From IMG/VR virus record IMGVR_UViG_3300031957_003366, positions 1 through 64,000 of that record: a stretch of 64,000 nt of DNA. One strand, given 5' to 3'. A model generated the notes under the pieces. The model did not search any database, was not told where the DNA came from, and worked only from the letters and a program-made list of their open reading frames with translations. Shown in pieces: positions 288-31,000 of the stretch (position 1 is its first letter; each line of letters starts with the position of its first letter). A program made the position numbers and the translations under genes. This stretch comes from a virus.

Positions 288-614
288 TTAAGAATTGTCT
301 TGCGCTTCTTCAAGCTGCCTTCTTACTTTTTCTTTTTCTTGTTTTCTCTTCTTTCTTCGCTTTTCTTCGCTGCGAATTTCCGAAGGTTTTCTGTAATATT
401 GTCTTTCTCTGTGGTTCTCAAGGACACGATCTTTCTTTAGCATCCTCTCTAGGACTCTGTATGCCTTCATAACATCTCCGTTCCTTACTTCCACTTGGTA
501 TGGCTCAATTCCGTCTAGGGCATTGATTTTCTTTCCATACTTCTTTCTTTTCTTGTCAAGTTTTCGATCGTATTCTTCGAAATTTCCTTTACTTGACTTG
601 TTGTACTTTCTCAT
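288..614 (-). CDS. rpsU: bS21-like ribosomal protein
   Basis: This is a 108-residue, strongly basic protein. Residues about 38-92 match bacterial ribosomal protein bS21 in order and spacing: a V-x-V-R-N-G start, a helix (AYRVLERMLKKDRVL), then an RERQYYRKPSE segment that parallels RRREFYEKPTE of E. coli S21, followed by a Lys/Arg-rich tail. bS21 binds the 30S platform next to the anti-Shine-Dalgarno end of 16S rRNA and helps start translation. The protein is longer than cellular bS21 (about 70 residues) because of a 37-residue basic N-terminal extension and a longer charged tail. bS21 homologues are known in some marine phages. The gene lies in the head module after the protease, so late expression is likely. 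An RNA-binding protein with a similar composition is the alternative. Confidence 0.72.
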   Translation of the reverse strand: MRKYNKSSKGNFEEYDRKLDKKRKKYGKKINALDGIEPYQVEVRNGDVMKAYRVLERMLKKDRVLENHRERQYYRKPSEIRSEEKRRKKRKQEKEKVRRQLEEAQDNS

Positions 615-2565: not shown

Positions 2566-3373
2566 AGTTGATCTCCTCTACTAGGGATTGAAGCTTGAGA
2601 GTATCCAAAAGAAGCGCTTCATTTAGCTCTAGGTTCTCAAAGTTATTAAACTTCTTTGTAATGTCTTGTATGCCTTCTGAGATAACTGGGTTTTTTGCTT
2701 CAAAGCTTTCTAGGGCATATTTTAGTTCATTAAGCTTTTCTGTAATGAACATTTTGAACTCAACTCCATCATCAGCAAATGAGGTAATGAACTGAGAAAC
2801 TATTTTCTTTTGACCTTCTGAAAGCATTGTGCCGTATTCATCATTAAAGTTCTTAACAAACTCACGATAAACTAATGTGTCTATTGGCTTATACTCTTTC
2901 TTTTCACTGAGTGTTTCTTGACCACAAAGTTTCTTGACTAGGTTGTCTTCCACTAGAACACGGCTTTTGGTATTATCCACACCTTGTAGAATATTGTGTA
3001 TAGTGCCTAGATCTCTATAATTTGGAACAAAGTTGTTGTATACGCTTGTGCCTAGTTGCTTGTTTATAGCATTAATAAGCTTTGTTTGTGCGTTGAATGT
3101 TTGCTTTCGATCGGCCATCGCATACGAAAACTTACTTTCTTGGATTAGACGGTCGGCCAAGTGAGGCTCGGACATGTCTTTTGTCTCTAAGAGCGTTCGG
3201 TAAAGATAAAGCTCTTTATAAAGTAAGGTGTCTTTCTTGAAATGTTCTTTTACGATCTTGGTTATCTTGGCTGCTTTTTCTTTATCATCTACAAGAGCCG
3301 CTTTTGTAAGCTCTCTAACTAATGCTTCATAAAGAAAAGCGGTATTTCTTTTCTTATTGTACTTGGTCATCAT
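2549..3373 (-). CDS. Helical head-module protein (possible prohead core component)
   Basis: The 274-residue protein is almost entirely predicted helix, rich in Lys, Leu and Glu, with no signal peptide or membrane segment. It begins MMTKYNKKRNTAFLYEALVRELTKAAL. The start overlaps the portal 3' end by 20 bases and has an SD (GGAGAG) seven bases upstream; either of the two adjacent Met codons could be used. In T4 the genes after the portal encode prohead core proteins and the protease. The position and helical character suggest a core or scaffold role, but there is no sequence match I can name. Confidence 0.7.
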   Translation of the reverse strand: MMTKYNKKRNTAFLYEALVRELTKAALVDDKEKAAKITKIVKEHFKKDTLLYKELYLYRTLLETKDMSEPHLADRLIQESKFSYAMADRKQTFNAQTKLINAINKQLGTSVYNNFVPNYRDLGTIHNILQGVDNTKSRVLVEDNLVKKLCGQETLSEKKEYKPIDTLVYREFVKNFNDEYGTMLSEGQKKIVSQFITSFADDGVEFKMFITEKLNELKYALESFEAKNPVISEGIQDITKKFNNFENLELNEALLLDTLKLQSLVEEINYGDSN

Positions 3374-5294
3374 CTTTTCTCTCCAGTGATTCTAAAAGAT
3401 TGTCGATTTCTTTGGAATGCTCCTCAAAATCGTCCTCTACTGTATAACTAGTTTCTTTTTTCTCAACCATCCCCTCTAAGGTTGGTTCTATGTTCTCAAA
3501 AAAGACTTCAGAAGGCTTTGGAAGACCTATTTTTGACCTTTTTGTGTTGCCTGTTGCGAACTCTGGAACGGCCATTGACTTCATTGCCATTCGGTTCTTC
3601 TTGATTCTTCCATCTTTCTTAGGCTTATACATTTTGCCCTTCGAAGCTTCTGTTGTTGTTAGGATGTTTCCAGAATCGTCCCTTTTGCCCGGTGCAACTT
3701 TTAGAATGTCTTCTTCTGGCTCAGCGGCGTCAGTATCCGGTGTTTCCTCTCCACCTAAGTCGGGTGTTTCGGAATCCGCTCCAAAAGCGCCTATGTCGCC
3801 GCCGCCAAGTGAGGTTTCTTCCTCGTCGGAGGCTGCGGCAGCGTCAAGGTCAGAAGAGAACTTTCGGTCAAAATACATTTCACGCTGGTTGCGAAGGAAT
3901 TCTTCTTGTGAGATGTTGAAAATGTGCTCGGCAATGTATCTCTTGGAGAAAAAGCCTTCAGTTGCGGATGAGGCAACCTCAAACTGTGTTTTCATTGTCT
4001 CTAGGTCCTGAAGTTCGGCAATCCTAGACGGGTTATTGAGTTTAAGGTTGAAACCTGTAAGATCAGACTTTCTAAAGCCTAAAGTATAAAGGTGAACCAT
4101 TCCAATCTTTGTAAGCTCGGAAATCAAGGCCTTTTGGAGGCGTTGGATAGTTCTGGCGAAACGAATGTCTTTCTGCGAGAGAGATGTTCGGTCTTCTGCG
4201 TTCTCACCGGCGACTAGATAAGCTTGTGGGATCTTGATGGCGGAAAATAGCTTTTCACGAAGGTATTTCACGTCTTCGATCTGTGAAGTGAACTGACCTC
4301 CTGCTAATGTCTCGATTTTTGTTCCTTGTTGGCCGCCTCGGACTGGAATGTAATAATCTTCCTCTACAGACATTGGGTTATAACGAAGATCTGCTCTTCC
4401 GCTGTCTGCATCAACGATCTGGTTTCGTTTGAGGGTGGTCATAACCTCTTGCATGTATGTGCTTACGTCCTGTGGGGCTACAGCGCCAACATCAACATAA
4501 AATACTCGGCGTTCGGGCGCTCTTACGATACGATAGGACATCATTGCGTCTTCTACAAGCGTTAGTTGCCTCCAGATACGACGAGACCCCTCAAGAACAG
4601 AGGTTCCATAGGGGTTATACTTATTATTTCCTAAAATACGGAAGTGAGCTATCTGCCAGTCCTCAAAGGTCAAGCCACCGGAGTTCCACTGAAACTGTAA
4701 ATAGTTTGGGTTGTTTTCATCTTGTCCTTCTAGCCTTTCTAGTTCGCTGAGAGGCATAGCAACAACATTTTGGATGCCTAGTTTCTCATCAACGTCCAAA
4801 TAAAGGAAAAAGTCTCCATACTTACAAAGAGTTCTTGCCCATCCGTAAAGGTTGAGGTCTACATTGAGAACATCGTAAAACAAGATCTGTAATGCCGTCT
4901 TGATTTCTTGGTTTGGACAGTCAATCGTAAGCATTTTACGAATGTCTGTTGAGGTAGTCATCTCATCGGCATAAATATCAAGCGCAGAGTTTAGTTCTGG
5001 CATGTACTCCATCTGATCGAAGTCAATATATCGATCGTTCCGGTTCTGATTGAGCATAAAGTCGCCGTAAAACGAGTAGTTCTTCTCGTAATCGGCTTTT
5101 TTGAACTCTTTTCCTGATGCGGAGGTCCAATTAAACTTATCAAGTTCCTTTCGGCGGTATTTTCTTGCCTGCTCGTGTCGATAGTTGACGATTGGGCCTG
5201 AGAAAAGCCGTGTAAGCGCCTTGTAAAGCGGGTTGTCCGGGTTTCTTGTGTTCTCTGAACTTCTTTTAGGTATGATTGTTTTTTTATATGCCAT
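3354..5294 (-). CDS. 20: Portal protein (T4 gp20 family)
   Basis: This 646-residue protein forms the dodecameric channel at the head vertex through which DNA is packaged. It carries the gp20 signature RAPERRVFYVDVG near residue 260, preceded by YGTSVLEGSRRIWRQL, and followed by a region ending DIRFARTIQRLQKALISEL that is typical of the family. T4 gp20 is 524 residues; the surplus here is an acidic, Gly/Ala/Asp/Glu-rich stretch from about residue 480 plus a basic C-terminal tail. The gene lies directly after the large terminase, three bases away, as in many T4-type packaging modules. Confidence 0.95.
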   Translation of the reverse strand: MAYKKTIIPKRSSENTRNPDNPLYKALTRLFSGPIVNYRHEQARKYRRKELDKFNWTSASGKEFKKADYEKNYSFYGDFMLNQNRNDRYIDFDQMEYMPELNSALDIYADEMTTSTDIRKMLTIDCPNQEIKTALQILFYDVLNVDLNLYGWARTLCKYGDFFLYLDVDEKLGIQNVVAMPLSELERLEGQDENNPNYLQFQWNSGGLTFEDWQIAHFRILGNNKYNPYGTSVLEGSRRIWRQLTLVEDAMMSYRIVRAPERRVFYVDVGAVAPQDVSTYMQEVMTTLKRNQIVDADSGRADLRYNPMSVEEDYYIPVRGGQQGTKIETLAGGQFTSQIEDVKYLREKLFSAIKIPQAYLVAGENAEDRTSLSQKDIRFARTIQRLQKALISELTKIGMVHLYTLGFRKSDLTGFNLKLNNPSRIAELQDLETMKTQFEVASSATEGFFSKRYIAEHIFNISQEEFLRNQREMYFDRKFSSDLDAAAASDEEETSLGGGDIGAFGADSETPDLGGEETPDTDAAEPEEDILKVAPGKRDDSGNILTTTEASKGKMYKPKKDGRIKKNRMAMKSMAVPEFATGNTKRSKIGLPKPSEVFFENIEPTLEGMVEKKETSYTVEDDFEEHSKEIDNLLESLERKDDDQVQ

Positions 5295-5297
5295 TTT

Positions 5298-6869
5298 TTA
5301 GCCCTTGTATAGCCAAGAATATTGTTGCTGTTGTTTTTTTGCTTCGCTTGCCTGTCCTGATTTCATAACTGGTAAGTGGCCAATCATTCCAGGGATAGTT
5401 GTATTTAGTTCTCTTTTATCTGTAAAGAATGCGTTCATCATTTTTTCTGATTTTTCTCGGTCATAAGCGCTCTCTTCGTATACGGCGTCTCTAATCCAGC
5501 AAGCAATCGCAAAAGACATTACCAAGTCATCGTGCTTTGATCTCATTGCTTGAGGTCGGCCATTTTTCCAGACGAAAGTTTTAAATTCTCCAAATAATCT
5601 TTTAGACCTTGTTATAACTAGTTGGTTGCGAATCATTTCTTCCATTTTGGCGATGATTAATGGCCTTGTCTTAGAAGAAGTGGTAAAGCCGGGTGTTGCG
5701 CCGGTAATGTTTTCTGCTATTAAAGGATCAATAAATTCATCTCCCTTAGAATAATATAAGTTATTATACCTTAGATCTTTCAATTTGTCAATAAGCATAA
5801 ACCCAATATTATTACTTTCTACAACAACCAAACACGTGCCGTATCTTGTTGCGGCCTGATGTACCATATTGGCGTACATATCTATGGCGACTTTTCCTTG
5901 GTATTCCGCAACTATTTCATTTGTGGTAATGTTCCAAACGTGAAAAGCAGAATAGTCTTCACCGTCACCCCTAGCAACGTCAACAGTCATAAAGTATTTT
6001 GATGCTGGATCGTATTCTTGCCAAATCCAAAGGTTTCTATCAAAGCCGTCTCTGTATAGGGGTTCTTGGACTTGCTCAAATACCCATTCTAAGTATTCGG
6101 CATCAATAACAGTCTCGCCTGAAGATAGGAAGGAACATTCTAGCTCCTGTGCTATCTCCTTCTTGGTCATGTTTCTTGTTTCTTTTTTAAACCACTCTTC
6201 ATCACGATCAGGGTGAAGGTGCCAAGGCAAGCTAGTTGGATGGAAATCGTTTAGACCAGCATCAGCGTCGGAATACATACGATAAAACCAGTTACCAATC
6301 CCGTTTGGCGTTGATAAGGCAATACAGCGACCGCCGGTTGATAGTGTTGGGTACAAGCCTTTCCAAAGCTCGTCCAAGCCATCAACGTGAGCAGCCTCAT
6401 CTACCACTAGGAGCGATAGTGCTTCTGAACGGCCGGCATCTCCTGACGTTGAAGAAGCCTTTATCTGTGAGCCGTTTGTTAACTCAAATGAGTTTCTGTT
6501 GTCTATTGATATATCAGCTATTTGCAACCATGGTGGTAAGTTCTTTATCATGAACTTAACTTTTTTAACCAAGTTGCCGGCTGTTGAGAGTTTGGTCGCA
6601 ACAACAAGAATGTTCTTTTCCCTGTGGAAGAGAATAAGCCACGCAGAGTATGCTGCGGTTATTGTTGAGATGCCAAGCTGACGTCCTTTTAAGATTATGT
6701 TGAAACGGTAAGCGTTATAATCTTGAAGAAGATCTTTCTGGAAGGGGTAGGTCCTAAATGGTATAGGGCCTTGTTCGGGGTGAGAGATGCGAACATAGTT
6801 CTCAATAAAGTAATTGGGATCTTTGCCGCACCTAACAATCTCTTTTATTACTTGCTCTTTATTAAGCAC
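5298..6869 (-). CDS. 17: Terminase large subunit (T4 gp17 family)
   Basis: This 523-residue ATP-driven DNA packaging motor and nuclease has all the expected motifs. The ATPase carries Walker A GRQLGIST (residues 62-69), Walker B LLVVDEAAH (about 153-161, with D157 and E158) and the coupling motif LSTPNG (185-190). The RNase H-fold nuclease carries FMTVDVARGDGEDYS (catalytic Asp near 297), LVVVESNNIG and SKHDDLVMSFA near residue 445. It is somewhat shorter than T4 gp17 (610). The gene is followed by the portal and preceded by an unidentified 163-residue protein. Confidence 0.96.
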   Translation of the reverse strand: MLNKEQVIKEIVRCGKDPNYFIENYVRISHPEQGPIPFRTYPFQKDLLQDYNAYRFNIILKGRQLGISTITAAYSAWLILFHREKNILVVATKLSTAGNLVKKVKFMIKNLPPWLQIADISIDNRNSFELTNGSQIKASSTSGDAGRSEALSLLVVDEAAHVDGLDELWKGLYPTLSTGGRCIALSTPNGIGNWFYRMYSDADAGLNDFHPTSLPWHLHPDRDEEWFKKETRNMTKKEIAQELECSFLSSGETVIDAEYLEWVFEQVQEPLYRDGFDRNLWIWQEYDPASKYFMTVDVARGDGEDYSAFHVWNITTNEIVAEYQGKVAIDMYANMVHQAATRYGTCLVVVESNNIGFMLIDKLKDLRYNNLYYSKGDEFIDPLIAENITGATPGFTTSSKTRPLIIAKMEEMIRNQLVITRSKRLFGEFKTFVWKNGRPQAMRSKHDDLVMSFAIACWIRDAVYEESAYDREKSEKMMNAFFTDKRELNTTIPGMIGHLPVMKSGQASEAKKQQQQYSWLYKG

Positions 6870-7369: not shown

Positions 7370-7924
7370 TTATTCTCCCGGAGTGTGCTTGTATTGAGCA
7401 ATCTTATTTGCAAGTTGTTCGATGAATTTAGGATCATCGAGCATACCTTCCACAGAAGGCATTTCTTTCATTTGTTTTTGAATCGCTCTTTTTATTCTTG
7501 GAAGGAAAGTCGTTCTGAACAATTTACCTGATGCAACTTTAGCACGTATGTTGTTTACAAAGGTTTCGTTGCCCACTAAGCTGTCTCCAACTTCTTCTGG
7601 AGTGTCGTCTAAAGTATCAAATCTAGATATAATTGATTGTATTACCTTGTCTTGCTCTGCATCCATCTTTGATGCATCGGCAGATGCGTCTGCAACGGCA
7701 GCATTGTATACTTTCTTGCCGCCTCTGCTTAGGCCGGCAGCTGAATCCATTGCTTCAATCTCGCCAGCACGAACATCTAGATCATCCGCTCCACTTGGGC
7801 CTCTTCGGGGCCTTCGGGTCGAGGCTTTCTTACTACGGCCAAAAAGACCTCCAAGGGTTGCCTCGTCTAGGTCGGCTATTTCTTCCTTGATTATCTCAAC
7901 TAGTTTTTCTTTTGTGATTCTCAT
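7370..7924 (-). CDS. Helical hypothetical protein with basic linker
   Basis: I chose the ATG at 7924 (184 residues, MRITKEKLVEIIKEEIADL) because GGAG lies five bases upstream; an earlier ATG at 7966 would overlap the upstream gene by 71 bases and adds only a Lys-rich tail. The N-terminal amphipathic helix is of a type I remember from many marine-phage proteins. It is followed by a basic Arg-Arg-Pro-Arg-Arg segment, an Ala/Asp/Ser-rich stretch and a helical C-terminus. No enzyme motif is visible. It lies just before the packaging genes, so a structural or scaffold-like role is possible but unproven. Confidence 0.65.
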   Translation of the reverse strand: MRITKEKLVEIIKEEIADLDEATLGGLFGRSKKASTRRPRRGPSGADDLDVRAGEIEAMDSAAGLSRGGKKVYNAAVADASADASKMDAEQDKVIQSIISRFDTLDDTPEEVGDSLVGNETFVNNIRAKVASGKLFRTTFLPRIKRAIQKQMKEMPSVEGMLDDPKFIEQLANKIAQYKHTPGE

Positions 7925-8303
7925 CTGGTCTCCATCCTTCTTTCCACCTTTCTTCTCTTCCTTCAATCCACTGAATGTAACATTTGAAACAAGAATCCCA
8001 TTTGGTTTTACAAGTTTCGTCTCTCAGGGTCTTGATCTGCGAAGAACAAGTGGGACATTTAGTTTTGCTTTCTTTACTAAGTAGTCTCTTTGTAATAAAA
8101 AATCCTTTTTGTTCTTCTAGTGTCTCGGAGTCATTAGATTGGATTTTTTGAGCCAACTCTTTTCGCTGCTCTTTATAATCTTTTTCTTTTTCCTCGTCCC
8201 ATCCGCTTTGAGGTGTCTTGATTGTCTCTTCACCCCATCGCTCTTTGATTGCTTTTTCTAGTTTTGCTATTTCGTTTAGTTTTTTTTCATCAAGTGGGAG
8301 CAT
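7896..8303 (-). CDS. Zinc-ribbon hypothetical protein
   Basis: The ATG at 8303 is preferred because AAAGG lies six bases upstream; a TTG further upstream would add seven residues. The 135-residue protein has a charged helical N-terminal half, then FFITKRLLS and a zinc-binding C-terminal half with CPTC, an isolated Cys in ETCKTKW, and CFKC, then IEGREERWKEGWRP. Two CxxC pairs with about 20 residues between them suggest one bound zinc ion. Similar FxTKRLLS / CFKCYIQ proteins occur, as far as I remember, in marine T4-type phages without a known function. It overlaps both neighbours by a few bases. Confidence 0.7.
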   Translation of the reverse strand: MLPLDEKKLNEIAKLEKAIKERWGEETIKTPQSGWDEEKEKDYKEQRKELAQKIQSNDSETLEEQKGFFITKRLLSKESKTKCPTCSSQIKTLRDETCKTKWDSCFKCYIQWIEGREERWKEGWRPDENHKRKTS

Positions 8304-8724
8304 TGTATACCTTTTGTTTAGCAATAAATACGATTTCTTTTAAGTTTGGAGTTGTTTCCATACTATCTAGATCTTTTATAGAACACCATTTATAATCTGT
8401 GTGCTCTTTTCCGTCTAAGTGGATCTTACCTGAAAACTTGTTTGTTGTAAAGAAATAAACTCTATTCTTTTTTATAACGTTAGTATCAATAAGGTTTTTT
8501 GGATCTATTATCAGATTTGATTCTTCTTTTACTTCTCGGCAAGTTCCATCTTTTATGTCTTCGTCAACGTGAATGTGGCCGCCAACTGAGCACCACGCTC
8601 CCGGCATCCAAGGATCGTTGGGGCCTCTTTTCAGCGAAAGGAAATGATCTTTGTCCTTGAAGATAATAACGTGACCTGAGAACTTAGAGTCTTTTTTCAT
8701 TTTATTTATTTTGATCTTGATCAT
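8290..8724 (-). CDS. Nudix hydrolase
   Basis: The 144-residue protein contains a near-perfect Nudix box at residues 49-71: G-x5-E-x7-R-E-V-x-E-E-S-N-L, with Asn in place of the usual second Gly. The metal-binding Glu residues of REVKEE are intact. Nudix enzymes hydrolyse a nucleoside diphosphate linked to another moiety; the substrate cannot be read from the sequence. WMPGAWCSVGGH before the box is typical of the fold. The start at 8724 overlaps the upstream stop (ATGA), which supports translational coupling to the nucleotidyltransferase-fold gene. Confidence 0.88.
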   Translation of the reverse strand: MIKIKINKMKKDSKFSGHVIIFKDKDHFLSLKRGPNDPWMPGAWCSVGGHIHVDEDIKDGTCREVKEESNLIIDPKNLIDTNVIKKNRVYFFTTNKFSGKIHLDGKEHTDYKWCSIKDLDSMETTPNLKEIVFIAKQKVYNAPT

Positions 8725-9554
8725 TGGGACAAGGACATCATTAGGTCATAGGAGTCAGATCTATACTGAGCCAATTGATCAATGTATCCTTGCTTGCGAA
8801 GAATCTTGAAAGCAATGTTTTCTGGTGAGTAAGCGCCCTCTCGTTGAAGGCCGGCTTTTCTCATTCTTTTGAGTTTTGCGAAGATGCGTACGGCTTGTCG
8901 TTTTGCCTCAACAAACTTTTCTTGGCTCATCAACTCTCGGACCAAGCCTATTTGATGCATAATCAAGTGCGCTTTCTTCATCGCAGAATCATAATCAAAG
9001 TCTCGGTCTTCTTTTCTTGGGCTCTTGATCCACTGATCTTTGGTTATTGAGTATACAGGGCGGTCTTCATCGTCGTATGCTTCGTCGACGTCCTCAATGT
9101 AGATCTCAACTTCGTGGCCAAAGATGGTTATGTTATGTTGCTCATTCCACACCAATCTACGAGAATTAAAAAGATCACGAACCAAGTCAATGTCTTGATT
9201 AACTTTGGAAAAATCGACCACAATGTGTAAGTCAACATCAGAATCAGGATGATAGTTGTACCCGGCCAGTGAACCAGTGAAGTAAATGTCTTCCACAGCG
9301 TCTGGGTCAATGTTGTGATCTCGAAGGAATGCATTTGCTATTCTTTTTAGTTTAAGTTTGACTTCTAGTTTTAGGTGGCCGTCTTCATTCCAGACCTTGG
9401 ATGATAAGCCGTCGTGTTGTTTGAAGGTTTCTTTGGACAAGACTGCCTTTCTTATCTCTTCTTTTTTTAGAGAGCGTTTATTTTTCTGTTCTTGCTGCAA
9501 AGCGCTTCTTTCTTTTGCTGCAGACTCAAATATTTTCCAAAACTGATTATACAT
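8721..9554 (-). CDS. Nucleotidyltransferase-fold protein
   Basis: The 277-residue protein has the polymerase-beta-type nucleotidyltransferase motif GSLAGYNYHPDSDVDLHIVV at residues 94-113, with the GS pair and the two metal-binding Asp residues of DVD (106 and 108). A third acidic strand (VEIYIEDVD) follows near residue 150. A Lys/Glu-rich helical N-terminus (1-75) and a helical C-terminus flank this core. Such enzymes transfer NMP to protein, RNA or small molecules; the target is unknown. It ends in an ATGA overlap with the Nudix gene, so the two are probably co-translated. Confidence 0.78.
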   Translation of the reverse strand: MYNQFWKIFESAAKERSALQQEQKNKRSLKKEEIRKAVLSKETFKQHDGLSSKVWNEDGHLKLEVKLKLKRIANAFLRDHNIDPDAVEDIYFTGSLAGYNYHPDSDVDLHIVVDFSKVNQDIDLVRDLFNSRRLVWNEQHNITIFGHEVEIYIEDVDEAYDDEDRPVYSITKDQWIKSPRKEDRDFDYDSAMKKAHLIMHQIGLVRELMSQEKFVEAKRQAVRIFAKLKRMRKAGLQREGAYSPENIAFKILRKQGYIDQLAQYRSDSYDLMMSLSQ

Positions 9555-9555
9555 T

Positions 9556-12192
9556 TTATTTCTCTTTGCTTAAAAAGGATCGCAAGACTTTTTTTCCGTT
9601 TAGATACCACACTTTTTCTCCGTTGGCCCTTTCAACAGCAGGGCCATCTTCACGGTGCAACTTTCCGTTTAGATACCATTCTTTGCTTCCGCCGACCCAT
9701 TCACGAGCAGGGCCATCTTCACGGTGCAACTTTCCGTTTAGCCACCATTCTTTGTGTCCGCTGGTAGACTCAACAGCAGGGCCATCTTCACGGTGGCGCT
9801 TTCCGTTTAAATGCCATTCTTTGCCATCTGGGCCTTGGCTAAACTCACGTCCGTCGCCAAGCTTCTTGTAAACGTATTTTGATATCTCTTTTTGGATTTC
9901 TTGACCAAACGCTTCTTTTGCAGGTTTGATCAAGGAGATTAGTTTGGCCTTTTTGCCATCATTAATAACCATGTCTCTTTCGTCCATAAACTGGTCAGTT
10001 CCAAAGTGGATTTGATATTTTTCATCTTTATGATCTGGGTGTTTAGGGATGAAAATGATCAGCGGATCTTCGTCAGTGTGGTATTCTTCGTAGTAATCTA
10101 AGCCCGGCGCTGCGGTGCACCATTCTGTCCCTTTCCCTAGCTCACAAGCGGCCCCTTTGTTTGTTGGTATGTAGACAGTCCAGTTCTCGTCGTCAAGAAT
10201 AACCTTTTTTCCTTGATCGGCATCTAAATAAGATTTCTTATCAAGATGTGCTTTGATTTTCGGACGAGCCTCAGCAACTGTTTTAAGAAGACCTTCAAGA
10301 TCTAGCTTTTGAAGTTGCTTCTCTTCCATAAACGGCTTCTGTTGAAAGAAGAGCTCAAGCGCTGCGCTGTATTTTTCAGTGAGGGGTTTAGTCCAGGATC
10401 TGACCGAACCCAACGTTCCTTTCTTGTAAAGACCCAAGATCCATTGCAAGCCTTCGGCCCGATCGTTTTCTTGTATGTCTGTTGGGATAAAGTTCAAAAA
10501 AAGTTCTTGGAATCTTGGTGTTGCTAACCAACGTGCCCCTTTCTCCAGATCCCATTCTTCATTTCTAGCAGCTGCTTTCTTCATTTTCTTTGAATCAAAC
10601 TGCAACATTACTTGTTCCATTGAAACTTCGCTTAAAAGCCTGGTTGCCTCTTTCTCGATAAGCCCTTGTAAGCCTTCTTTGTTTATTTCTATGGCGGCAA
10701 GTTGTTTTTTGGCTGCTTTCTTGGTTTTGTGTGTTCCAAGACGATCGCCGCCTTTCTTTGGATAAACAACATACTCATCATCAACTTTTTTTATTGTTTC
10801 ATCAACAAGTTTTTTAGTTATTTGTTCAATAAGGTTTTTTATTGTTTCAGATATATTTTTTTGTTTAGTTAATTTTTCGACTTCTTGTTGTGAAACTTTT
10901 TTTCCGTTTAGATACCACCATTTGCCTCCGTTGGCATATTCAATAGCAGGGCCATCTTCACGGTGGAGATCTCCGTTTAGCCACCATTCTTTGGCTCCGT
11001 TGGTATACTCACGAGCAGGGCCATCTTCACGGTGCAACTTTCCGTTTAGCCACCATTCTTTGTGTCCGCTGGTAGACTCAACAGCAGGGCCATCTTCACG
11101 GTGGAGATCTCCGTTTAGCCACCATTCTTTGCGTCCGTCGGCCCTTTCAACAGCAGGGCCATCTTCACGGTGGATATCTCCGTTTAGATACCATTCTTTG
11201 CGTCCGTCGGCCCTTTCAACAGCAGGGCCATCTTCACGGTGCAACTTTCCGTTTAGCCACCATTCTTTGTGTCCGCTGGCCCTTTCAACAGCAGGGCCAT
11301 CTTCACGGTGGCGCTTTCCGCTTAGATACCAGAATTTGCCATCTGGGCTTTGGCTAAACTCACGGCCGTCGTCAAGCTTCTTGTAAACGTATTTTGATAA
11401 GTTTTTTTGGATTTCTTGACCAAACGCTTCTTTTGCAGGTTTGATCAAGGAGATTAGTTTGGCCTTTTTGGGGTCACTGACGCCGATGTCTTCTTCGTCC
11501 ATAAACTGGTCAGTTCCAAAGTGGATTTGGTATTTTTCACCTTTATGATCTGGGTGTTTAGGGATGAAAATGATCAGCGGATCTTCGTCAGTGTGGTATT
11601 CTTCGTAGTAATCTAAGCCCGGCGCTGCGGTGCACCATTCTGTCCCTTTCCCTAGCTCACAAGCGGCCCCTTTGTTTGTTGGTATGTAGACAGTCCAGTT
11701 CTCGTCGTCAAGAATAACCTTTTTTCCTTGATCGGCATCTAAATAAGATTTTTTCTCAAGGTGGGCTTTGATCGCTGGCCGTGCTTTATCAACCACGTCG
11801 CCTAGCCTTTTAAGATCTAGTGCTTGCAGTTGTTTTTGTTCCATGAACCTTTTTTGTTGAAAGAAAAGTTCAAGATTAGATCTATGTTTATTTACAACTT
11901 CTCTGGTCCAACGCCTAATCGATCCAAGTTCATCTTTTTTATAAAGCCCCAAGATCCACTGCAATCCTTCTGCACGATCATTATCTTCAATGTCTTTTGG
12001 AATGAAGTTCAGAAAAAGTTCTTGAAAACTTGGTGTTTTTAGCCACCGCTCTACTTTCTCAGGTGTCCATCTTTCATTTCTTGCAGCTGCTTTCTTCATT
12101 TTCTTTGAATCAAGCTGCTGCATTACATCTTCTAGTTTTACTTCGTTAAGAAGTTCCAAAGTTATTTCTTCTATAACGTCTTTGATGCTCAT
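9556..12192 (-). CDS. Internally duplicated protein with 23-residue MORN-like repeats
   Basis: This 878-residue protein is made of two copies of one architecture. Each copy has a helical N-terminal part (SKKMKKAAARNE, then QELFLNFIP), a conserved middle domain with GAACELGKGTEWCTAAPG and YQIHFGTDQFMDE, and a string of 23-residue repeats of the form W-x-L-N-G-x-x-H-R-E-D-G-P-A. The first copy (about 1-430) has six full repeats, the second (about 515-878) three; both end in a half repeat, WYLNGKK. A linker (about 470-505) contains YVVYPKKGGDRLGTHKTKKA, a module I remember from other phage proteins. The repeats resemble the MORN variant, a beta-hairpin scaffold. Function unknown. The gene lies between the putative lysis pair and the nucleotidyltransferase; its ATG overlaps the upstream stop and has AGGAG upstream. 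Confidence 0.85.
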   Translation of the reverse strand: MSIKDVIEEITLELLNEVKLEDVMQQLDSKKMKKAAARNERWTPEKVERWLKTPSFQELFLNFIPKDIEDNDRAEGLQWILGLYKKDELGSIRRWTREVVNKHRSNLELFFQQKRFMEQKQLQALDLKRLGDVVDKARPAIKAHLEKKSYLDADQGKKVILDDENWTVYIPTNKGAACELGKGTEWCTAAPGLDYYEEYHTDEDPLIIFIPKHPDHKGEKYQIHFGTDQFMDEEDIGVSDPKKAKLISLIKPAKEAFGQEIQKNLSKYVYKKLDDGREFSQSPDGKFWYLSGKRHREDGPAVERASGHKEWWLNGKLHREDGPAVERADGRKEWYLNGDIHREDGPAVERADGRKEWWLNGDLHREDGPAVESTSGHKEWWLNGKLHREDGPAREYTNGAKEWWLNGDLHREDGPAIEYANGGKWWYLNGKKVSQQEVEKLTKQKNISETIKNLIEQITKKLVDETIKKVDDEYVVYPKKGGDRLGTHKTKKAAKKQLAAIEINKEGLQGLIEKEATRLLSEVSMEQVMLQFDSKKMKKAAARNEEWDLEKGARWLATPRFQELFLNFIPTDIQENDRAEGLQWILGLYKKGTLGSVRSWTKPLTEKYSAALELFFQQKPFMEEKQLQKLDLEGLLKTVAEARPKIKAHLDKKSYLDADQGKKVILDDENWTVYIPTNKGAACELGKGTEWCTAAPGLDYYEEYHTDEDPLIIFIPKHPDHKDEKYQIHFGTDQFMDERDMVINDGKKAKLISLIKPAKEAFGQEIQKEISKYVYKKLGDGREFSQGPDGKEWHLNGKRHREDGPAVESTSGHKEWWLNGKLHREDGPAREWVGGSKEWYLNGKLHREDGPAVERANGEKVWYLNGKKVLRSFLSKEK
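9580..9820 (-). repeat. 69-bp in-frame repeats, second set (three and a half units)
   Basis: Tandem units of 69 bp encode the 23-residue W-x-L-N-G/HREDGPA repeat at the C-terminus of the 878-residue protein. Units are similar but not identical, with variation clustered in the six to eight codons between GPA and the next Trp. There are no spacers, so this is not a CRISPR array. Edges are approximate. Confidence 0.85.
9859..10240 (-). repeat. Long direct repeat, copy 2
   Basis: This stretch is nearly identical to 11374-11755 over about 380 bp at a constant offset of 1515 bp (505 codons) without indels. It encodes the GTEWCTA/QFMDE middle domain of the second half of the 878-residue protein. 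Its conservation at DNA level is far higher than that of the flanking helical parts. Confidence 0.85.
10897..11337 (-). repeat. 69-bp in-frame repeats, first set (six and a half units)
   Basis: Six full 69-bp units and a terminal half unit encode the HREDGPA repeats in the first half of the 878-residue protein. Some neighbouring units share long identical tracts, consistent with expansion by unequal recombination or slippage. Edges are approximate. Confidence 0.85.
11374..11755 (-). repeat. Long direct repeat, copy 1
   Basis: This is the partner of 9859-10240, encoding the conserved middle domain in the first half of the 878-residue protein. The few differences I see are scattered, for example around the codons after QFMDE. 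Confidence 0.85.
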
Positions 12193-13276: not shown

Positions 13277-13287
13277 TATAAATAGTT
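13277..13287 (-). promoter_or_regulatory. Candidate late promoter element (AACTATTTATA), lysis-like pair
   Basis: The coding strand reads TAACTATTTATAGTAACAAAGGAG, 20 bases before the holin-like start and immediately after the stop of the Mre11-Rad50 gene. Its first 14 bases from AACT match the element before 21022 exactly (AACTATTTATAGTAA). Assigned by recurrence. Confidence 0.55.
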
Positions 13288-16200
13288 AGACATTTACAAA
13301 AGCGTATCCCTCCTTCTTCTGGATTATTACTTCATCATCAACAATGTCTTTAAGAGAATCTAGGTGAGAAATAAGGAATACTGTTTCAAAGTTTTCACGA
13401 TACATTTGAAGGATCTTGATAAAGCCATCCATGTTCTCGGCGTCGAGTGCTGTTGCCGGTTCGTCCAGCACGGCAAAGTTTGGAATGGGCAAAGAAGAGA
13501 CATTTAGAAGCCCCAAGCGAATAGCTGTTGCGGCAATAGTCTTTTCTGCTCCTGATCCTAGTTCGATTGGTCTTGCGTCAAACTTTGAGTGCTTGATAAA
13601 AATGTTTAGTTTGTTTCCGTCTTCCTCAAAGAACACTTGGAAATCAACAACATCAGAAAGCACCTTCTCGATCTCTTCATTGATAACTGGAAGCATTTTC
13701 TTTGTTACATCATAAGGGATCCCGTTTGGATGAACACAACGCATAAAATAAACAAATGTAGAATAATCTTCTCTTGCTTTTTTGAGCTTTGCTTTTGTTT
13801 GGTTTGCTAAGTCAATCCTTGCTTTTGCTCCTGCCTCGTCTCCAAGAAGTTCTAAAAGGTCATCGTTGCAACTATCACAGTCGCTTTGAGTGTTCTTGAT
13901 TGTTCTAGATGTAACAGTTAGTTGCTCTTTGAGTTTTAAGATCTTTCTGATCTCTGCTTCGTTCTTTTCGTATGTTTCCTTCTTGGCCAAAAGGGCGGTC
14001 AAGGACATTTGAGTCATTTTTAGCTCCATTTCCTTGTTCTTGAGGCGGTTTTCGGTGTCTTCTTTGGCTGCTACAATGTTATCATACTTGTCTAGAAGAT
14101 CATTGACCTCATCAATGTTGAGTTTCTTGATTTCATTTTCACGTTCCTCTACATTGCCTTCCAAGCCTTTGATTGCTTGCTCAACAACATCAAAAGAGCC
14201 GACTGCTTCGTGGGCATCTTTGATGAAGCGGCAAGTGGGAAACTGATCGCCGCAAGGAACAGAAGAAAGTAGCCTTTGTTTGTCCTCTATGTCGGCCTTC
14301 TCCCGCTTTCTTTCTTTTAGCACTACTGTGAGGTCTGTAAGTTGTTTGAGTGTCTCAGAATGGACCTCCTTGCGTCCTAAGACCCTTTCTAGATCAAAGT
14401 CCTGAATAAAAGTCTCACACTGCTCAATACGAACTGAGATTTCTTTTATTTCATCCTCTAAGGTTGTTTTTTTAGATTCTAAGTTTTTGATCTCGTTCAA
14501 AACACTTTCAATGTCAATGTCGATCTCTTTCTGGGAATCTACTTGGTGCTGGATCTTACTCTTTTCTTGTTTGAGGCCATCTAAAATAACGTTTAGTTCA
14601 TTACAATGAAGCTTTACAGACAAAATCTTTTCTTTGAGCGTCTCAAGTTCTGCTTGCTCTTCCTCAATCTGAGCATCATAGTCAACACCTTCTAGCCCCT
14701 TTACCAAGGCACGCTTATCTTGTGAGATTTCTTTTGCTTTCTTGAACTTTTTATCTAAGATCTCAAGGTCAAGGAACTTTGCGAGGATTTCTTTGCGCTT
14801 TGTTGTACCTTCATTGATAAAGTTTAGTGAGTTCATCTGGGAAATCATTGACGTTAGTAGAAAGTCGTCTAGTGTTCCAAGGTAGCGGCGAATGTTTGCG
14901 TCGGTTCCGTTTCTTGTCTGTCCGTTTAGGCATTCGGTTTCACCGGTGACCGGATCAAACACAGAAAAGGTTAGATCTGTCTTTGCCTCAATACTTGCTT
15001 TACCATGTAAACGCTTGGTATACTTCTTTCCCTCACGTTTGATAGTAAAAACCTTGTCTCCAATAGAAAACTGAACCTCTCCTGTGGCGTGTTCTTTATT
15101 TTGGTTGATCAAATCAACGTTCTTACGCACCGACTTTGAGCTGGAATTGAAAATAGCGTATAGAATACTATCAATAATAGAAGACTTTCCTGAATAGTTC
15201 TTACCAAAGATACCAATAATACCATTTAGTTTCGCAAAGTCAATTGAGTTATCTTCTCCATAATTAAAAAGGTTGTCAAACTTAAATTTGTCTAGATTCC
15301 AATGAATGTTTCGCTTTGTTTCCTCGTCTTCGTTGATAAGAGTCGAGATCTGCTTATTTAGGGCGAAAACTTGTGCTAGTTGCTCTTTATCTAACTCATA
15401 ATCCGCAAGATACTCTTCCATTAGTTTTTCTTGGACCTTGGCGTCACGCATGTTCATTCTTTCTGCGTGTGCGGAGGTGGCTGACCCACGAGCGCCCGAA
15501 AACCGGTTGAGAAAAGCAACTGATTCAGGCTTGAACTTGGTTCTTACCACATCGGCAGCCTTTTTTAGGGTTGAGATCGGGTGATTGTGCTCTGAAATAA
15601 GGCGAACTCGGGCGCCTGTTGGGATACTAGTACCTCTTGGTAGTCTTCCGGTCTTTGTAAGCTTGATTGTGATGAAAGGCTTAGGGTTGGAGACAGGAAT
15701 GTGCTTACAAGTAAAACTTTCTTTGTCTTTAATGTCCCAAACAAGGAAGCCTTTGTCGTTTGACTCTCCAAAGTTCTGCTGGATTGTAGATCCTGGGTAT
15801 CGGAAGCGTCCGTGGTCGTCTAGTAGTTGGTTTGTCTTGTGAATGTCCCCAAAAAAGCCGTAATCAAAGTTCTCAAACGTTTCTAGATTCACTTCGCCCT
15901 CTAGAACCCATCCAATGTCTGTTTCAGACCCTCGAACAGCGCCGTGGTGTAGGGCAATGTTGATAAAGTCCTGATCGGGCTCAAGATTCCAGTTGGCTTG
16001 GTCATCAAAAACGCACATAGCGTGTAAAACAAACTTTTCTGAGAGGTTTACTTGCTCATAACCCTTGAAAAGATGTAGATCCGGGTGTTTTAGGTTCTGA
16101 ACGATGGGAGTTAGGGCATCTTGGCGTGCTGAGTTCTTTAGATTTCCATCGTGGTTGCCCAAAAGAACATAAGTTGGCGCAATATCAGCCAAACTTGATA

Positions 16201-16390
16201 GGAAGTCTGATGCTAGCTCAACAAATTCGGGTGAAATCTGGGTCTTTGTGTGTGCGATGTCCCCTGTGTGAATAATAAAGTCGACATTTTCTTCTTTTAA
16301 AGTTTTATAAAGCTGTGAAAATACTTGTCGATACTCTTTTTGGTATTTGTAGTTTCGGATGTGTGTGTCTGAAATTTGTGCAAAACGCAT
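13286..16390 (-). CDS. Fused Mre11-Rad50 (gp47-gp46) recombination nuclease
   Basis: The 1034-residue protein joins two normally separate subunits. Residues 1 to about 330 are an Mre11/gp47 phosphoesterase with SDTH (7-10), HTGD (41-44), GNHD (78-81), HHG (148-150) and GDIH (181-184). Residues about 365-1034 are a Rad50/gp46 ATPase with Walker A GKNYSGKS (396-403), long coiled coils, a Cys pair at 713 and 720 where a zinc hook would be, a signature-like LGSGAEK (944-950), Walker B FAVLDEP (972-978) and an H-loop LISH (1006-1009). The complex resects DNA ends for recombination-dependent replication. The joint is uninterrupted: no stop or frame change. It is the third gene of the operon after RuvC-like and primase genes; its ATG overlaps the primase stop. 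Confidence 0.93.
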   Translation of the reverse strand: MRFAQISDTHIRNYKYQKEYRQVFSQLYKTLKEENVDFIIHTGDIAHTKTQISPEFVELASDFLSSLADIAPTYVLLGNHDGNLKNSARQDALTPIVQNLKHPDLHLFKGYEQVNLSEKFVLHAMCVFDDQANWNLEPDQDFINIALHHGAVRGSETDIGWVLEGEVNLETFENFDYGFFGDIHKTNQLLDDHGRFRYPGSTIQQNFGESNDKGFLVWDIKDKESFTCKHIPVSNPKPFITIKLTKTGRLPRGTSIPTGARVRLISEHNHPISTLKKAADVVRTKFKPESVAFLNRFSGARGSATSAHAERMNMRDAKVQEKLMEEYLADYELDKEQLAQVFALNKQISTLINEDEETKRNIHWNLDKFKFDNLFNYGEDNSIDFAKLNGIIGIFGKNYSGKSSIIDSILYAIFNSSSKSVRKNVDLINQNKEHATGEVQFSIGDKVFTIKREGKKYTKRLHGKASIEAKTDLTFSVFDPVTGETECLNGQTRNGTDANIRRYLGTLDDFLLTSMISQMNSLNFINEGTTKRKEILAKFLDLEILDKKFKKAKEISQDKRALVKGLEGVDYDAQIEEEQAELETLKEKILSVKLHCNELNVILDGLKQEKSKIQHQVDSQKEIDIDIESVLNEIKNLESKKTTLEDEIKEISVRIEQCETFIQDFDLERVLGRKEVHSETLKQLTDLTVVLKERKREKADIEDKQRLLSSVPCGDQFPTCRFIKDAHEAVGSFDVVEQAIKGLEGNVEERENEIKKLNIDEVNDLLDKYDNIVAAKEDTENRLKNKEMELKMTQMSLTALLAKKETYEKNEAEIRKILKLKEQLTVTSRTIKNTQSDCDSCNDDLLELLGDEAGAKARIDLANQTKAKLKKAREDYSTFVYFMRCVHPNGIPYDVTKKMLPVINEEIEKVLSDVVDFQVFFEEDGNKLNIFIKHSKFDARPIELGSGAEKTIAATAIRLGLLNVSSLPIPNFAVLDEPATALDAENMDGFIKILQMYRENFETVFLISHLDSLKDIVDDEVIIQKKEGYAFVNV

Positions 16391-28042: not shown

Positions 28043-31000
28043 TTATTCACCGGTAAAGAAACCGCCTCCTGTCGTCCTTGATGCAGCCACCCCATCGGAG
28101 GGCCTTCCTGATGTTGCATCGTCTTCGGCTGCAGATCTTGTTGTTCGTTCTCTTGCCTCTTCTCGTCCGCTTGCGGCGGCTTCGGCGGCTCTCTCCCTTG
28201 GCGTGGTTGCTTCTGCGATCTCTACAACATTATTATCGACTGCGGCGTCAACCTTGGCCAGCTCCACAAAAGAGAAGAAGTCATAAGGCCAGTTGTAGCT
28301 GTAAGTCGGGTCAACGAATGCGCCTTGTACGTTAACTCTTTCTCTGAGGCCTTTCGCCAATGAGGAGTCTCTTACTTGTTCGTAATAGTCATAAGCAGCT
28401 CTTTGCTTGACTTTGAACACCATCCAGCGTGTGTCGGCCGGGAGGCCTTCAGGGAACCAAGAACCTGCTTCGCCATAAGCTACATTTACAATGCTTTCTT
28501 CTTTGTCAAATCCAGAAGTTAGATCTTTTTTGCCGCTTGTTGATGTTGGTGGTAAGTTCTGCCAAATGTCCGCAAGATCTTGTCTGTTGAGTTTCATATT
28601 GAAGTCAAAAACAAACATTGCGAATGGTGACACTCCTTCGGGCCGATCTGGTCGCTCCAGGTTATAGAAGAAGTCATACTTAGGCGGTAGAACATACTCC
28701 TGTCCCTTTCTTGCTAGGCTGATATACTCATCTCTCACTGACGGTCTTTCACCGCCATTTCTAACAAAGAATCTAGCCAACTGGAACTCTGCGTAGTTTA
28801 TGGGGAATAATCTTTTTTCTCCTTCGACAATCGTATACGGAATGGCGACGATAGCTTCTTTTACGGTTCTTCGGTCAGCAATTTCACCTATTTTTACCGG
28901 CTCGTTCGTAAAGCCAAGCGCCTGTGCTAGTGACCCGGTCGTGCTTGTTATTATCGGCTCGGTGATCTGCATTTTGATACCTTGAGATCCGGTTGGAATC
29001 CGGCCGTGTTGATGCCACATTCCAACATAATAGTTGTCGGACACAGAGGAGTTATCATAAAAGCCGGAGCCAATGGTTTCGTTAAAGCTGGTGAATCCAT
29101 TACCAGTGTTACTGTATACAACATTCTCTAGCGCACCCGGCACTCGGGCTGACATGGTAAATGCATTGGAGTTAACCGAGCAGGTAAAATTGTTGTTCAG
29201 CGTGGTTGCCTTTGAGTAGATGTCGCCGGCGCTAGAAGTTATGCATGCATGAAGGTTTTGCAAAAATTCGTTGGCGGACGAACCGGTTGCAACCCAGCCA
29301 TTTGCGAAAACGTTGCCAGGCGACGGCGACGTGACGACTGTAAACGTAACGCCAATGTTGCCATCTGGCAGAGTTACCGTGTCGCCTGGACTCAATTGGT
29401 TATAGTCAACTTCAAATGTCAGCTGTGCACTTGTATTAGTGACGTTCATAGAAGATGTTCTATGGCTGAAGTCCAATACTGGCGTTTCCCACTTTGGTTG
29501 TATTGAGATTGCGTATTCTGGCGCTGATGGCACCGCACGAGAAGAATCTCCAACCCTTACTTTTCTTTTGAGTTGTATGGAGTCTGTTATTTTGGTTCGG
29601 CCGTCAATTCCAAAAGAAGTACCTTCGGCAATACCAAGATCATCATAAATTGTAAATGATTCAGTAAGGTTGCTTAGTATGTAGTCAATTGAGTGAATCT
29701 CGGCAGTTGGTTTGAAGACTAGTTCTACACCTTCTTCCTGGGTTGTGCTTCCAATGTCATAAGGAGGCAAGAAAGGAAGATGAGAAACCGGTGTCCCATT
29801 TGTATTATTGGCATCATCAACAGCCGGACCGAAGGAGCGATCGCCGTTGTACATATCGACACCCTCCTCAAAGACTCTAACTTTCATCCTGTATTCATTG
29901 CCAGGGATAAAAGGCCCGAAATCATTTTCTCCGGATGATACCAAAGAAGAAACAGAGCGGTTAGCCAAAAACAGATTCATTGTTTCTGCTAAGAAGTTGT
30001 TTACAGCGTATGAGTATAATGGAGAGCCAGCACGACTTGAGTCATACGAGGCAGTGCTGTATAATACTGCTGATTCATCAGGCTCGGAATCAATAATCGT
30101 AGTGATGAAACTTAGTGGATCTGTCACCGACTCAAATGGCATTCTATAATTGAACGAGGCAGAGATTCTAGCGGAGAACCCATCATAAACTGCAGTGGAG
30201 CCATTGCCTAAATAAGTTCCGGTACACTGTGTTAGAACGTCAAAACTTGATGTGAATATTGGATATCCGACTGAGATTCCTGATTTGATACTGTTACAAA
30301 GAATACCCGGACTAAAGAATGGCGCCATGGCAGTTCTAAACGAACCACCAGCATTGACTCCATTGGTTCTTAATGGATGCCCGGTGCCGTTAGTTGTTAT
30401 GACGTCACTAAAGGACTGGCTGAATAAAGTACCTAATTGCAGAACACGCTGCGCCGGATAGAACCCTTCATAAGGTAAGAACTTTTTAATTGCTTTGCAG
30501 GAAAGCTTGAGAACGCCCTTATTTTCGATTTCGGCCGAATCGTGTTTATCTTTTATAACGCTAAAGTATTTTAGGAAGTCTGAATTTGTGTAATCAGTAT
30601 AGAAAGCATTATTTGTGTCATCGACCAAGTACCCTCCGGTGATTGAAAGCATTGGAGACAAGATAGTTGACCGGCCCTCTTCTCCAGTTAGGATCTGATC
30701 TATTGTTTCGCTTATTCTAAATTCCGGAATGACGGAATAATCTTTTCCGGCGGCTTTTGCTTCTTGTACATAAGCATCATAATCTTCATAGTAGAAAGGC
30801 TCTTTTCCTGCTTCCTCGGGAGCGGTCCATGGCGTGGCGCCTATTATTTGATGTGGAACGAATGCCTGAACATCCGGATATCCCGATCCAGTGTAGGAGT
30901 AGATTAGATTTTGAACGTTTATTGTAAACGGTCTAGAATAAAGTGTAGATGGCTTTACCTTGGATTCCATCAATACCTGATCAGCGGTGAGCTGTTCGAA

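What the first reader, a model, noticed from the sequence alone, without database searches (positions are those of the whole stretch)
9556..12192. 878-residue duplicated protein with HREDGPA repeats and a GTEWCTA domain
Two head-to-tail copies of (helical part, conserved middle domain, 23-residue repeats) form one protein. The middle domain has invariant GKGTEWCTAAPG and YQIHFGTDQFMDE in both copies. I cannot name its function. The repeats resemble MORN variants (beta-hairpin scaffolds that bind membrane or partners). It is next to a possible lysis pair and to a nucleotidyltransferase and a Nudix gene. This is my best candidate for an undescribed system here.
Basis: partly seen in the sequence, partly recalled or inferred. 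Interest (0 to 1): 0.72.

Follow-up and report, generated by a model that had tools for sequence, protein, structure and literature searches.

The report
Duplicated head-packaged phage effector (predicted)
A marine T4-like phage gene encodes two copies of a phage-specific protein module, each starting with a short tag like the one T4 uses to load proteins into its capsid for injection into bacteria, and related phages put the same kind of tag on many other enzymes.

Summary
The ORF is real, on the minus strand (9556-12192, 878 aa). It is two copies of [N-terminal helix ending L-x-E, helical part, 'WCT' domain, MORN-like 23-residue repeats]. Between them lies a 40-residue 'LGTH' module, also preceded by L-x-E-type sites. 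The WCT domain belongs to a large phage family, with 180 matches in IMG/VR and 3 in 84,980 cellular species genomes. Gly181 and Cys187 are invariant in 89 members. It is remotely related to PcfJ domains and has no clear PDB match. The repeats model as a MORN fold.

The main new point is the N terminus. 82 of 86 members carry [L/I]-x-Glu where the leader helix ends, the T4 gp21 capsid-targeting cleavage motif. Within related phages the same peptide (MKLLFENWRKFLNE) heads WCT, nucleotidyltransferase, Nudix and other unrelated proteins. The window encodes a gp21-type protease, and PA5oct's homologue is annotated as a virion protein by mass spectrometry. Phages with 96-97% identical flanks carry only the small LGTH gene here, so the WCT cassettes are insertions in a variable cargo gene.

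Best reading: a capsid-packaged, co-injected effector polyprotein. Packaging, cleavage and host target are inferred. The 'invariant' block shared by the two copies reflects gene conversion.

The parts
12142..12192 (-). CTS-like leader a, residues 1-17 (MSIKDVIEEITLELLNE), predicted cut after LNE
   Evidence: AF2 helix 3-15 then a break; Glu17 aligned in 82 of 86 members, L/I15 in 85 of 87; matches T4 gp21 L/I-X-E (PMC9026906)
11473..12141 (-). Copy 1: helical part (18-150) and WCT domain core (151-240); Gly181, Cys187
   Evidence: AF2 mean pLDDT 92; 89-member alignment
10894..11388 (-). Copy 1: MORN-like array, six HREDGPA units (residues about 269-433)
   Evidence: Foldseek to T. brucei MORN1 6t68, E 1.4e-6; PF07661 below cut-off
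10798..10854 (-). CTS-like leader b, residues 447-465 (ISETIKNLIEQITKKLVDE)
   Evidence: A closely similar peptide (MSIKDIIEEITKKLVDE) is the N terminus of the 61-aa allele in L117; aligned allele in L126/L134
10678..10797 (-). LGTH module, residues 466-505 (TIKKVDDEYVVYPKKGG..LGTHKTKKAAKKQLAAIEINK)
   Evidence: 30 distinct phage contexts; Glu directly before its Thr in 23 of 30; phrog_3684 hit
10627..10677 (-). CTS-like leader c, residues 506-522 (EGLQGLIEKEATRLLSE)
   Evidence: aligns with leader a in front of copy 2
9958..10626 (-). Copy 2: helical part and WCT domain (residues 523-745), Cys692
   Evidence: alignment A3 row 2
9583..9873 (-). Copy 2: MORN-like array, three HREDGPA units
10843..12159 (-). 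Insertion 1 relative to L132: 1317 nt = 439 codons, in frame
   Evidence: blastn breakpoints, flanks 97.2% and 96.3% identical
9570..10678 (-). Insertion 2 relative to L132: 1109 nt
   Evidence: blastn breakpoints
8721..9554 (-). Adjacent nucleotidyltransferase-fold protein with its own leader-like N terminus (MYNQFWKIFE/S)
   Evidence: PF01909 above cut-off; homologues begin MLKESWNIFVES, MKSYINFVNEQ, MKLLLENWREYLDE
8290..8724 (-). Nudix protein, recurrent neighbour of WCT genes
   Evidence: PF00293; neighbours and one fusion in L036
1014..1637 (-). T4 gp21-type head maturation protease
   Evidence: phrog_207 E 1.9e-53

Best explanation
The ORF encodes a cargo polyprotein of the phage head. 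Each WCT-MORN module, and the small LGTH module between them, is preceded by a capsid-targeting leader. During head assembly the leaders dock the protein on the scaffold core. The gp21-type protease encoded 8 kb away cuts after (L/I)-x-Glu, removing the leaders and possibly separating the modules. The mature modules are then injected with the DNA and act on the new host. The WCT domain, a remote relative of PcfJ built around an invariant Cys and Gly, is the active or binding part; the interchangeable C-terminal repeats (MORN here; DUF4116-type and others elsewhere) most likely choose the target. Shown: architecture, family, conserved motif, leader sharing among unrelated proteins in related phages, cassette insertion relative to close relatives, presence of the protease. 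Inferred: packaging, cleavage, injection, target and any catalysis.
For: L/I-x-E leader at the same alignment position in 82 of 86 members. The motif near the N terminus is found in 84% of WCT ORFs against 44% of 590 neighbouring ORFs (Fisher P about 1e-14), with no significant enrichment of AxE, LxD or LxK. The same leader type (MKLLFENWRKFLNE) heads WCT, NTase, Nudix, HAD/Nudix and other unrelated proteins in the same contigs: 53 of 3647 N-terminal Met against 6 of 3953 internal Met. gp21-type protease in the window and in 12 of 22 WCT-bearing records, 10 of the 12 that exceed 100 kb, the shorter ones being possible fragments. PA5oct EST35_0205, next to terminase, carries the domain and is annotated 'structural protein, ESI-MS/MS'. 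Allelic phages with 96-97% identical flanks lack the cassettes. LGTH modules elsewhere are preceded by L/I-x-E-T. Fusions of WCT with Nudix, InPase, NTase or Amidoligase_2; InPase is a domain class described in polyvalent proteins thought to be injected (PMC5512222).
Against: No proteomics exists for this phage, and PA5oct's label is the depositor's. L/I-x-E is a short motif, frequent by chance (44% of control ORFs under the loose rule). Leader b ends VDE, not L/I-x-E, although LIE lies within it. The N-terminal peptide could be another localisation signal. No enzymatic activity is assignable; the conserved Cys could be structural. Some members lack a clear leader, in part because contigs or starts are truncated.
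Confidence: 0.66

Rival explanations
1. It is packaged in the head but is a structural or core component (scaffold-like or DNA-organising), with no action in the host.
For: Virion association of the PA5oct homologue; location beside terminase and protease genes in several loci.
Against: Gene is absent from near-identical phages; tandem paralogues with changing C-terminal repeats; fusion to nucleotide-acting or other enzyme domains; leader shared with enzymes. A core structural part should not vary like this.
Confidence: 0.17
2. The N-terminal peptide is not a capsid-targeting sequence but another sorting or regulatory tag; the protein is made late and works in the producing cell (for example MORN-mediated membrane or partner binding).
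For: MORN folds often bind membranes or partners (general knowledge); no cleavage has been observed; the motif is short.
Against: Position-specific conservation of L/I-x-E, absence of enrichment for control motifs, co-occurrence with the gp21-type protease, virion MS annotation in PA5oct.
Confidence: 0.15
3. The two-copy ORF is an assembly artefact or a decaying duplication, and the functional unit is the single module.
For: DNA-identical stretch between copies; a second assembly (L003/L131) ends exactly in that identical stretch; most relatives have one WCT domain per gene.
Against: The frame is open over 878 codons; insertion 1 is exactly 439 codons; the flanks of both insertions are collinear with L132; ORFs with two matched WCT stretches also occur in L049, L052, L077, L081 and L103.
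Confidence: 0.12

Closest known systems
Phage T4 internal proteins IPI-III and Alt (capsid-targeting sequence, gp21 cleavage)
   Same: Short N-terminal leader ending L/I-X-E, gp21-type protease in the same genome, diverse cargo on a common leader (T4 facts from PMC9026906); here the locus also varies between close relatives
   Different: Cargo here is the WCT domain with MORN repeats; three leaders occur in one ORF; packaging not shown
PcfJ (PF14284) domains of conjugative and other elements
   Same: G-x5-C spacing, following Tyr, Gln, then Asn/Asp in both; a PcfJ HMM ranks WCT proteins 35 of its top 50 among 3811 ORFs; hhalign score 24.1, P 0.003
   Different: No WCT member was seen to reach the Pfam cut-off; WCT has an extra Cys, W and T and different upstream helices; PcfJ function unknown
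MORN repeats (PF07661; solved example T. brucei MORN1, 6t68)
   Same: 23-residue beta-hairpin units; Foldseek E 1.4e-6
   Different: Below Pfam cut-off; HREDGPA consensus; appended to a phage domain
Polyvalent proteins of phages and conjugative elements (Iyer et al. 2017, PMC5512222)
   Same: Relatives fuse WCT to InPase, Nudix, NTase, Amidoligase_2; delivery with DNA proposed
   Different: The window protein repeats one module type and shows no recognised enzyme domain

Membership tests
T4-type internal head proteins (CTS cargo) | N-terminal 10-19 residue leader ending in L/I-X-E | tested here: met
   Residues 1-17 end LNE; aligned Glu in 82 of 86 members; enrichment test
T4-type internal head proteins (CTS cargo) | gp21-type head maturation protease in the same genome | tested here: met
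   phrog_207 E 1.9e-53 in the window; 12 of 22 related records
T4-type internal head proteins (CTS cargo) | Leader shared by non-homologous cargo of one phage | tested here: met
   In related phages, e.g. L036, L037, L040, L028; in the window itself only leader-like N termini of the NTase and neighbours
T4-type internal head proteins (CTS cargo) | Present in virions | tested here: inconclusive
   Only through PA5oct EST35_0205 annotation
T4-type internal head proteins (CTS cargo) | Cleaved after the Glu and injected | not testable with these tools
   Needs virion MS and infection assay
PcfJ (PF14284) | Score above the Pfam gathering threshold | tested here: not met
   WCT members only weakly or not matched (15.4 bits for L018); the separate PcfJ-like protein in G005 scores 27.2 and 24.6 bits against a cut-off of 25
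PcfJ (PF14284) | Conserved G-x5-C, Y, Q, N/D order | tested here: met
   (Asp instead of Asn in WCT)
MORN repeat proteins (PF07661) | Pfam score above threshold | tested here: not met
   13-17 bits against 29.6
MORN repeat proteins (PF07661) | MORN beta-hairpin fold | tested here: met
   AF2 model with Foldseek hits to several solved MORN proteins
Polyvalent proteins | Several biochemically different domains in one polypeptide | tested here: inconclusive
   Not in the window ORF; yes in L036, L076, L081

The most novel reading that the evidence does not exclude
Large T4-like phages carry an arsenal of injected effectors that share a phage-specific N-terminal packaging tag, and some of these, as here, are polyproteins whose internal tags let the prohead protease release several separate effectors (WCT-MORN, LGTH, WCT-MORN) from one chain inside the capsid. 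The WCT domain would be a new PcfJ-related effector domain with repeat-based targeting.
Probability: 0.35. Interest if true: 0.78.

Novelty: new variant of a known kind. Interest (0 to 1): 0.62.

Why it matters
If right, a simple N-terminal signature would let one read injected-effector repertoires directly from marine and jumbo phage genomes, whose proteins are largely unannotated. It also gives PcfJ, a mobile-element domain of unknown function, a phage relative with an invariant Cys and a confident structural model that can be tested.

Tried and rejected
Named function for the WCT domain: Pfam, PHROGs, NCBIfam, PADLOC and PDB by sequence gave none. Fold identity of the WCT domain alone: Foldseek best E 0.79, VIA-align Z at most 4.2, no usable match; this does not prove a new fold. 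The weak Pfam hits of the window protein to Recombinase, Phage_cap_E and DUF6745 are below cut-off or repeat-driven. Invariance between the two copies as evidence of function: rejected, gene conversion. Lysis pair: no supporting hit. The hhalign shuffle control gave 39 of 40 scores at or below 13.7 against 24.1 for the real profile (13.9 for the reversed profile); one shuffle returned 135.6 over 10 columns, treated as a numerical artefact. The hypergeometric P is not quoted as evidence because the members are related. A direct tblastn of the linker in phages found nothing below E = 6. A search for further phage PcfJ proteins found only the same record. Papers on PcfJ function: none useful in the library.

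Full report
OBSERVATION. The ORF lies on the minus strand at 9556-12192 and encodes 878 aa. It holds two copies of one module, with GKGTEWCTAAPG starting at residues 181 and 686, followed by six and three 23-residue HREDGPA units. The window comes from a 67.1-kb virus record of T4-like type: head maturation protease 1014-1637 (phrog_207, E 1.9e-53), portal 3354-5294 and terminase 5298-6869.

COPIES. The two copies are about 77-81% identical, but unevenly. Over residues 151-225 they differ by 0-2 nucleotides per 75-nt block, while the blocks over residues 26-150 differ at 14-29 positions, with many synonymous changes. The identical WCT block therefore reflects recent gene conversion, not demonstrated constraint.

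FAMILY. A profile of the middle domain found 180 relatives in IMG/VR and 3 in 84,980 cellular species genomes; one of those three genomes also holds a phage portal gene. In 89 members Gly181 and Cys187 are invariant; A176, C178, T184, W186, T188 and D235 are above 90%. Most relatives carry one WCT domain per gene, often in tandem paralogues; L049, L052, L077, L081 and L103 have two matched stretches in one ORF. C-terminal parts vary: HREDGPA/MORN, NPSEAVQLAAV (DUF4116), 'WPEAEAAIAKDP' repeats, or none.

STRUCTURE. AF2 of half 1 gave mean pLDDT 92.4, with a less certain N-terminal helix (3-15) that breaks at the LNE site. The repeats match solved MORN proteins. The WCT domain alone (pLDDT 92.2) has no usable PDB match.

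PCFJ RELATION. An HMM built only from cellular PcfJ domains placed 35 WCT proteins in its top 50 of 3811 ORFs, of which 112 are WCT; members are related, so no P value is claimed. hhalign gave score 24.1, P 0.003, with the WCT Cys in register with the PcfJ HHC Cys. PcfJ is invariant for C, Y and Q and nearly so for G and N, with the same G-x5-C spacing. One phage (G005, L018/L109) carries both a WCT protein and a PcfJ protein with the same kind of leader and downstream NPSE repeats. No WCT member was seen to pass the Pfam cut-off, so this is a remote relation, not membership.

LEADER. T4 capsid-targeting sequences are 10-19 residue N-terminal propeptides cut after L/I-X-E by gp21 (PMC9026906). 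In this family Glu aligned with residue 17 occurs in 82 of 86 sequences and L/I at 15 in 85 of 87. Under one rule for all ORFs the motif is near the N terminus in 84% of WCT ORFs and 44% of 590 neighbours; stricter versions give 71% against 25%, and 76% against 28%; control motifs show no significant difference. Strongest, in a clade of related contigs the same peptide type (MKLLFENWRKFLNE) begins WCT, nucleotidyltransferase, Nudix, HAD-Nudix, 5'-nucleotidase-like and many unassigned proteins. The pattern was derived from these data, so the count (53 of 3647 N-terminal Met against 6 of 3953 internal) is descriptive. The head protease family is found in 12 of 22 WCT records, 10 of the 12 that exceed 100 kb. 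PA5oct EST35_0205, beside terminase, is annotated as detected by ESI-MS/MS.

LOCUS HISTORY. L132/L133 and L134 share about 96-98% identical flanks with the window, yet hold only a 61-aa gene (leader plus LGTH module; L132) or the same short stretch (L134) in this place. The window has two insertions relative to them: 10843-12159 (1317 nt, exactly 439 codons) and 9570-10678 (1109 nt). L135-L137 hold another small cargo, and in L139-L141 no such gene was seen before the NTase. This is what a variable cargo slot looks like. The LGTH module occurs in 30 distinct contexts, with Glu before its first Thr in 23 and L/I two residues further up in 20, again like a protease site.

NEIGHBOURS. Homologues of the window's NTase and/or Nudix genes lie near, or are fused to, WCT genes in L027, L034-L040, L042, L043 and L076; L036 fuses Nudix to WCT, and L076 fuses NTase, WCT and Amidoligase_2. 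L081 fuses InPase (PF18823) and WG repeats with WCT. InPase fusions are described for polyvalent proteins that phages are thought to inject (PMC5512222).

MECHANISM. Most likely the protein is loaded into the prohead by its leaders, trimmed and perhaps split by the gp21-type protease, injected, and directed to a host target by its repeats, with the WCT domain acting through the conserved Gly/Cys site. Loading, trimming, injection and target are inferred; an enzymatic role for Cys187 is a guess (about 0.45).

VERDICT. Not a categorically new system: its delivery resembles T4 internal proteins. What is new is the WCT family, its PcfJ link, the shared leader across an arsenal of proteins including enzymes, and the polyprotein layout.

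Noticed in passing
window 13286-16390 (-): SbcD-like nuclease and SbcC-like ATPase appear fused in one 1034-aa protein (phrog_100 at 1-342, phrog_77 at 332-1029).
   Followed up: no
window 288-614 (-): Possible phage-encoded ribosomal protein S21 (phrog_21469, E 7e-5).
   Followed up: no
window 8721-9554 (-): NTase-fold protein with a leader-like N terminus (MYNQFWKIFE/S; homologue in L143 begins MKSYINFVNEQ), a second candidate packaged protein.
   Followed up: partly
window 7370-7966 (-): Protein whose internal Met starts MRITKEKLVEIIKEEIADLDE, another leader-like N terminus near the head genes; sequence after it differs between close relatives.
   Followed up: no
L028, L030, L032, L036-L040, L045, L050: Dozens of unrelated ORFs share the N terminus MKLLFENWRKFLNE or close variants, many without any Pfam hit: a list of candidate injected effectors.
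   Followed up: partly
L117-L130, L154-L222: LGTH module (TIKKV..VVYPKKGGKRLGTH..AAIEINK) occurs alone as about 54-aa proteins with a leader, and inside large HExxH-containing proteins.
   Followed up: partly
L079, L082, L104: Divergent PcfJ-like proteins of about 565 aa lie close to WCT genes in the same contigs.
   Followed up: no
window 28043-37243 (-): 3066-aa protein without any PHROG match at E 0.01.
   Followed up: no
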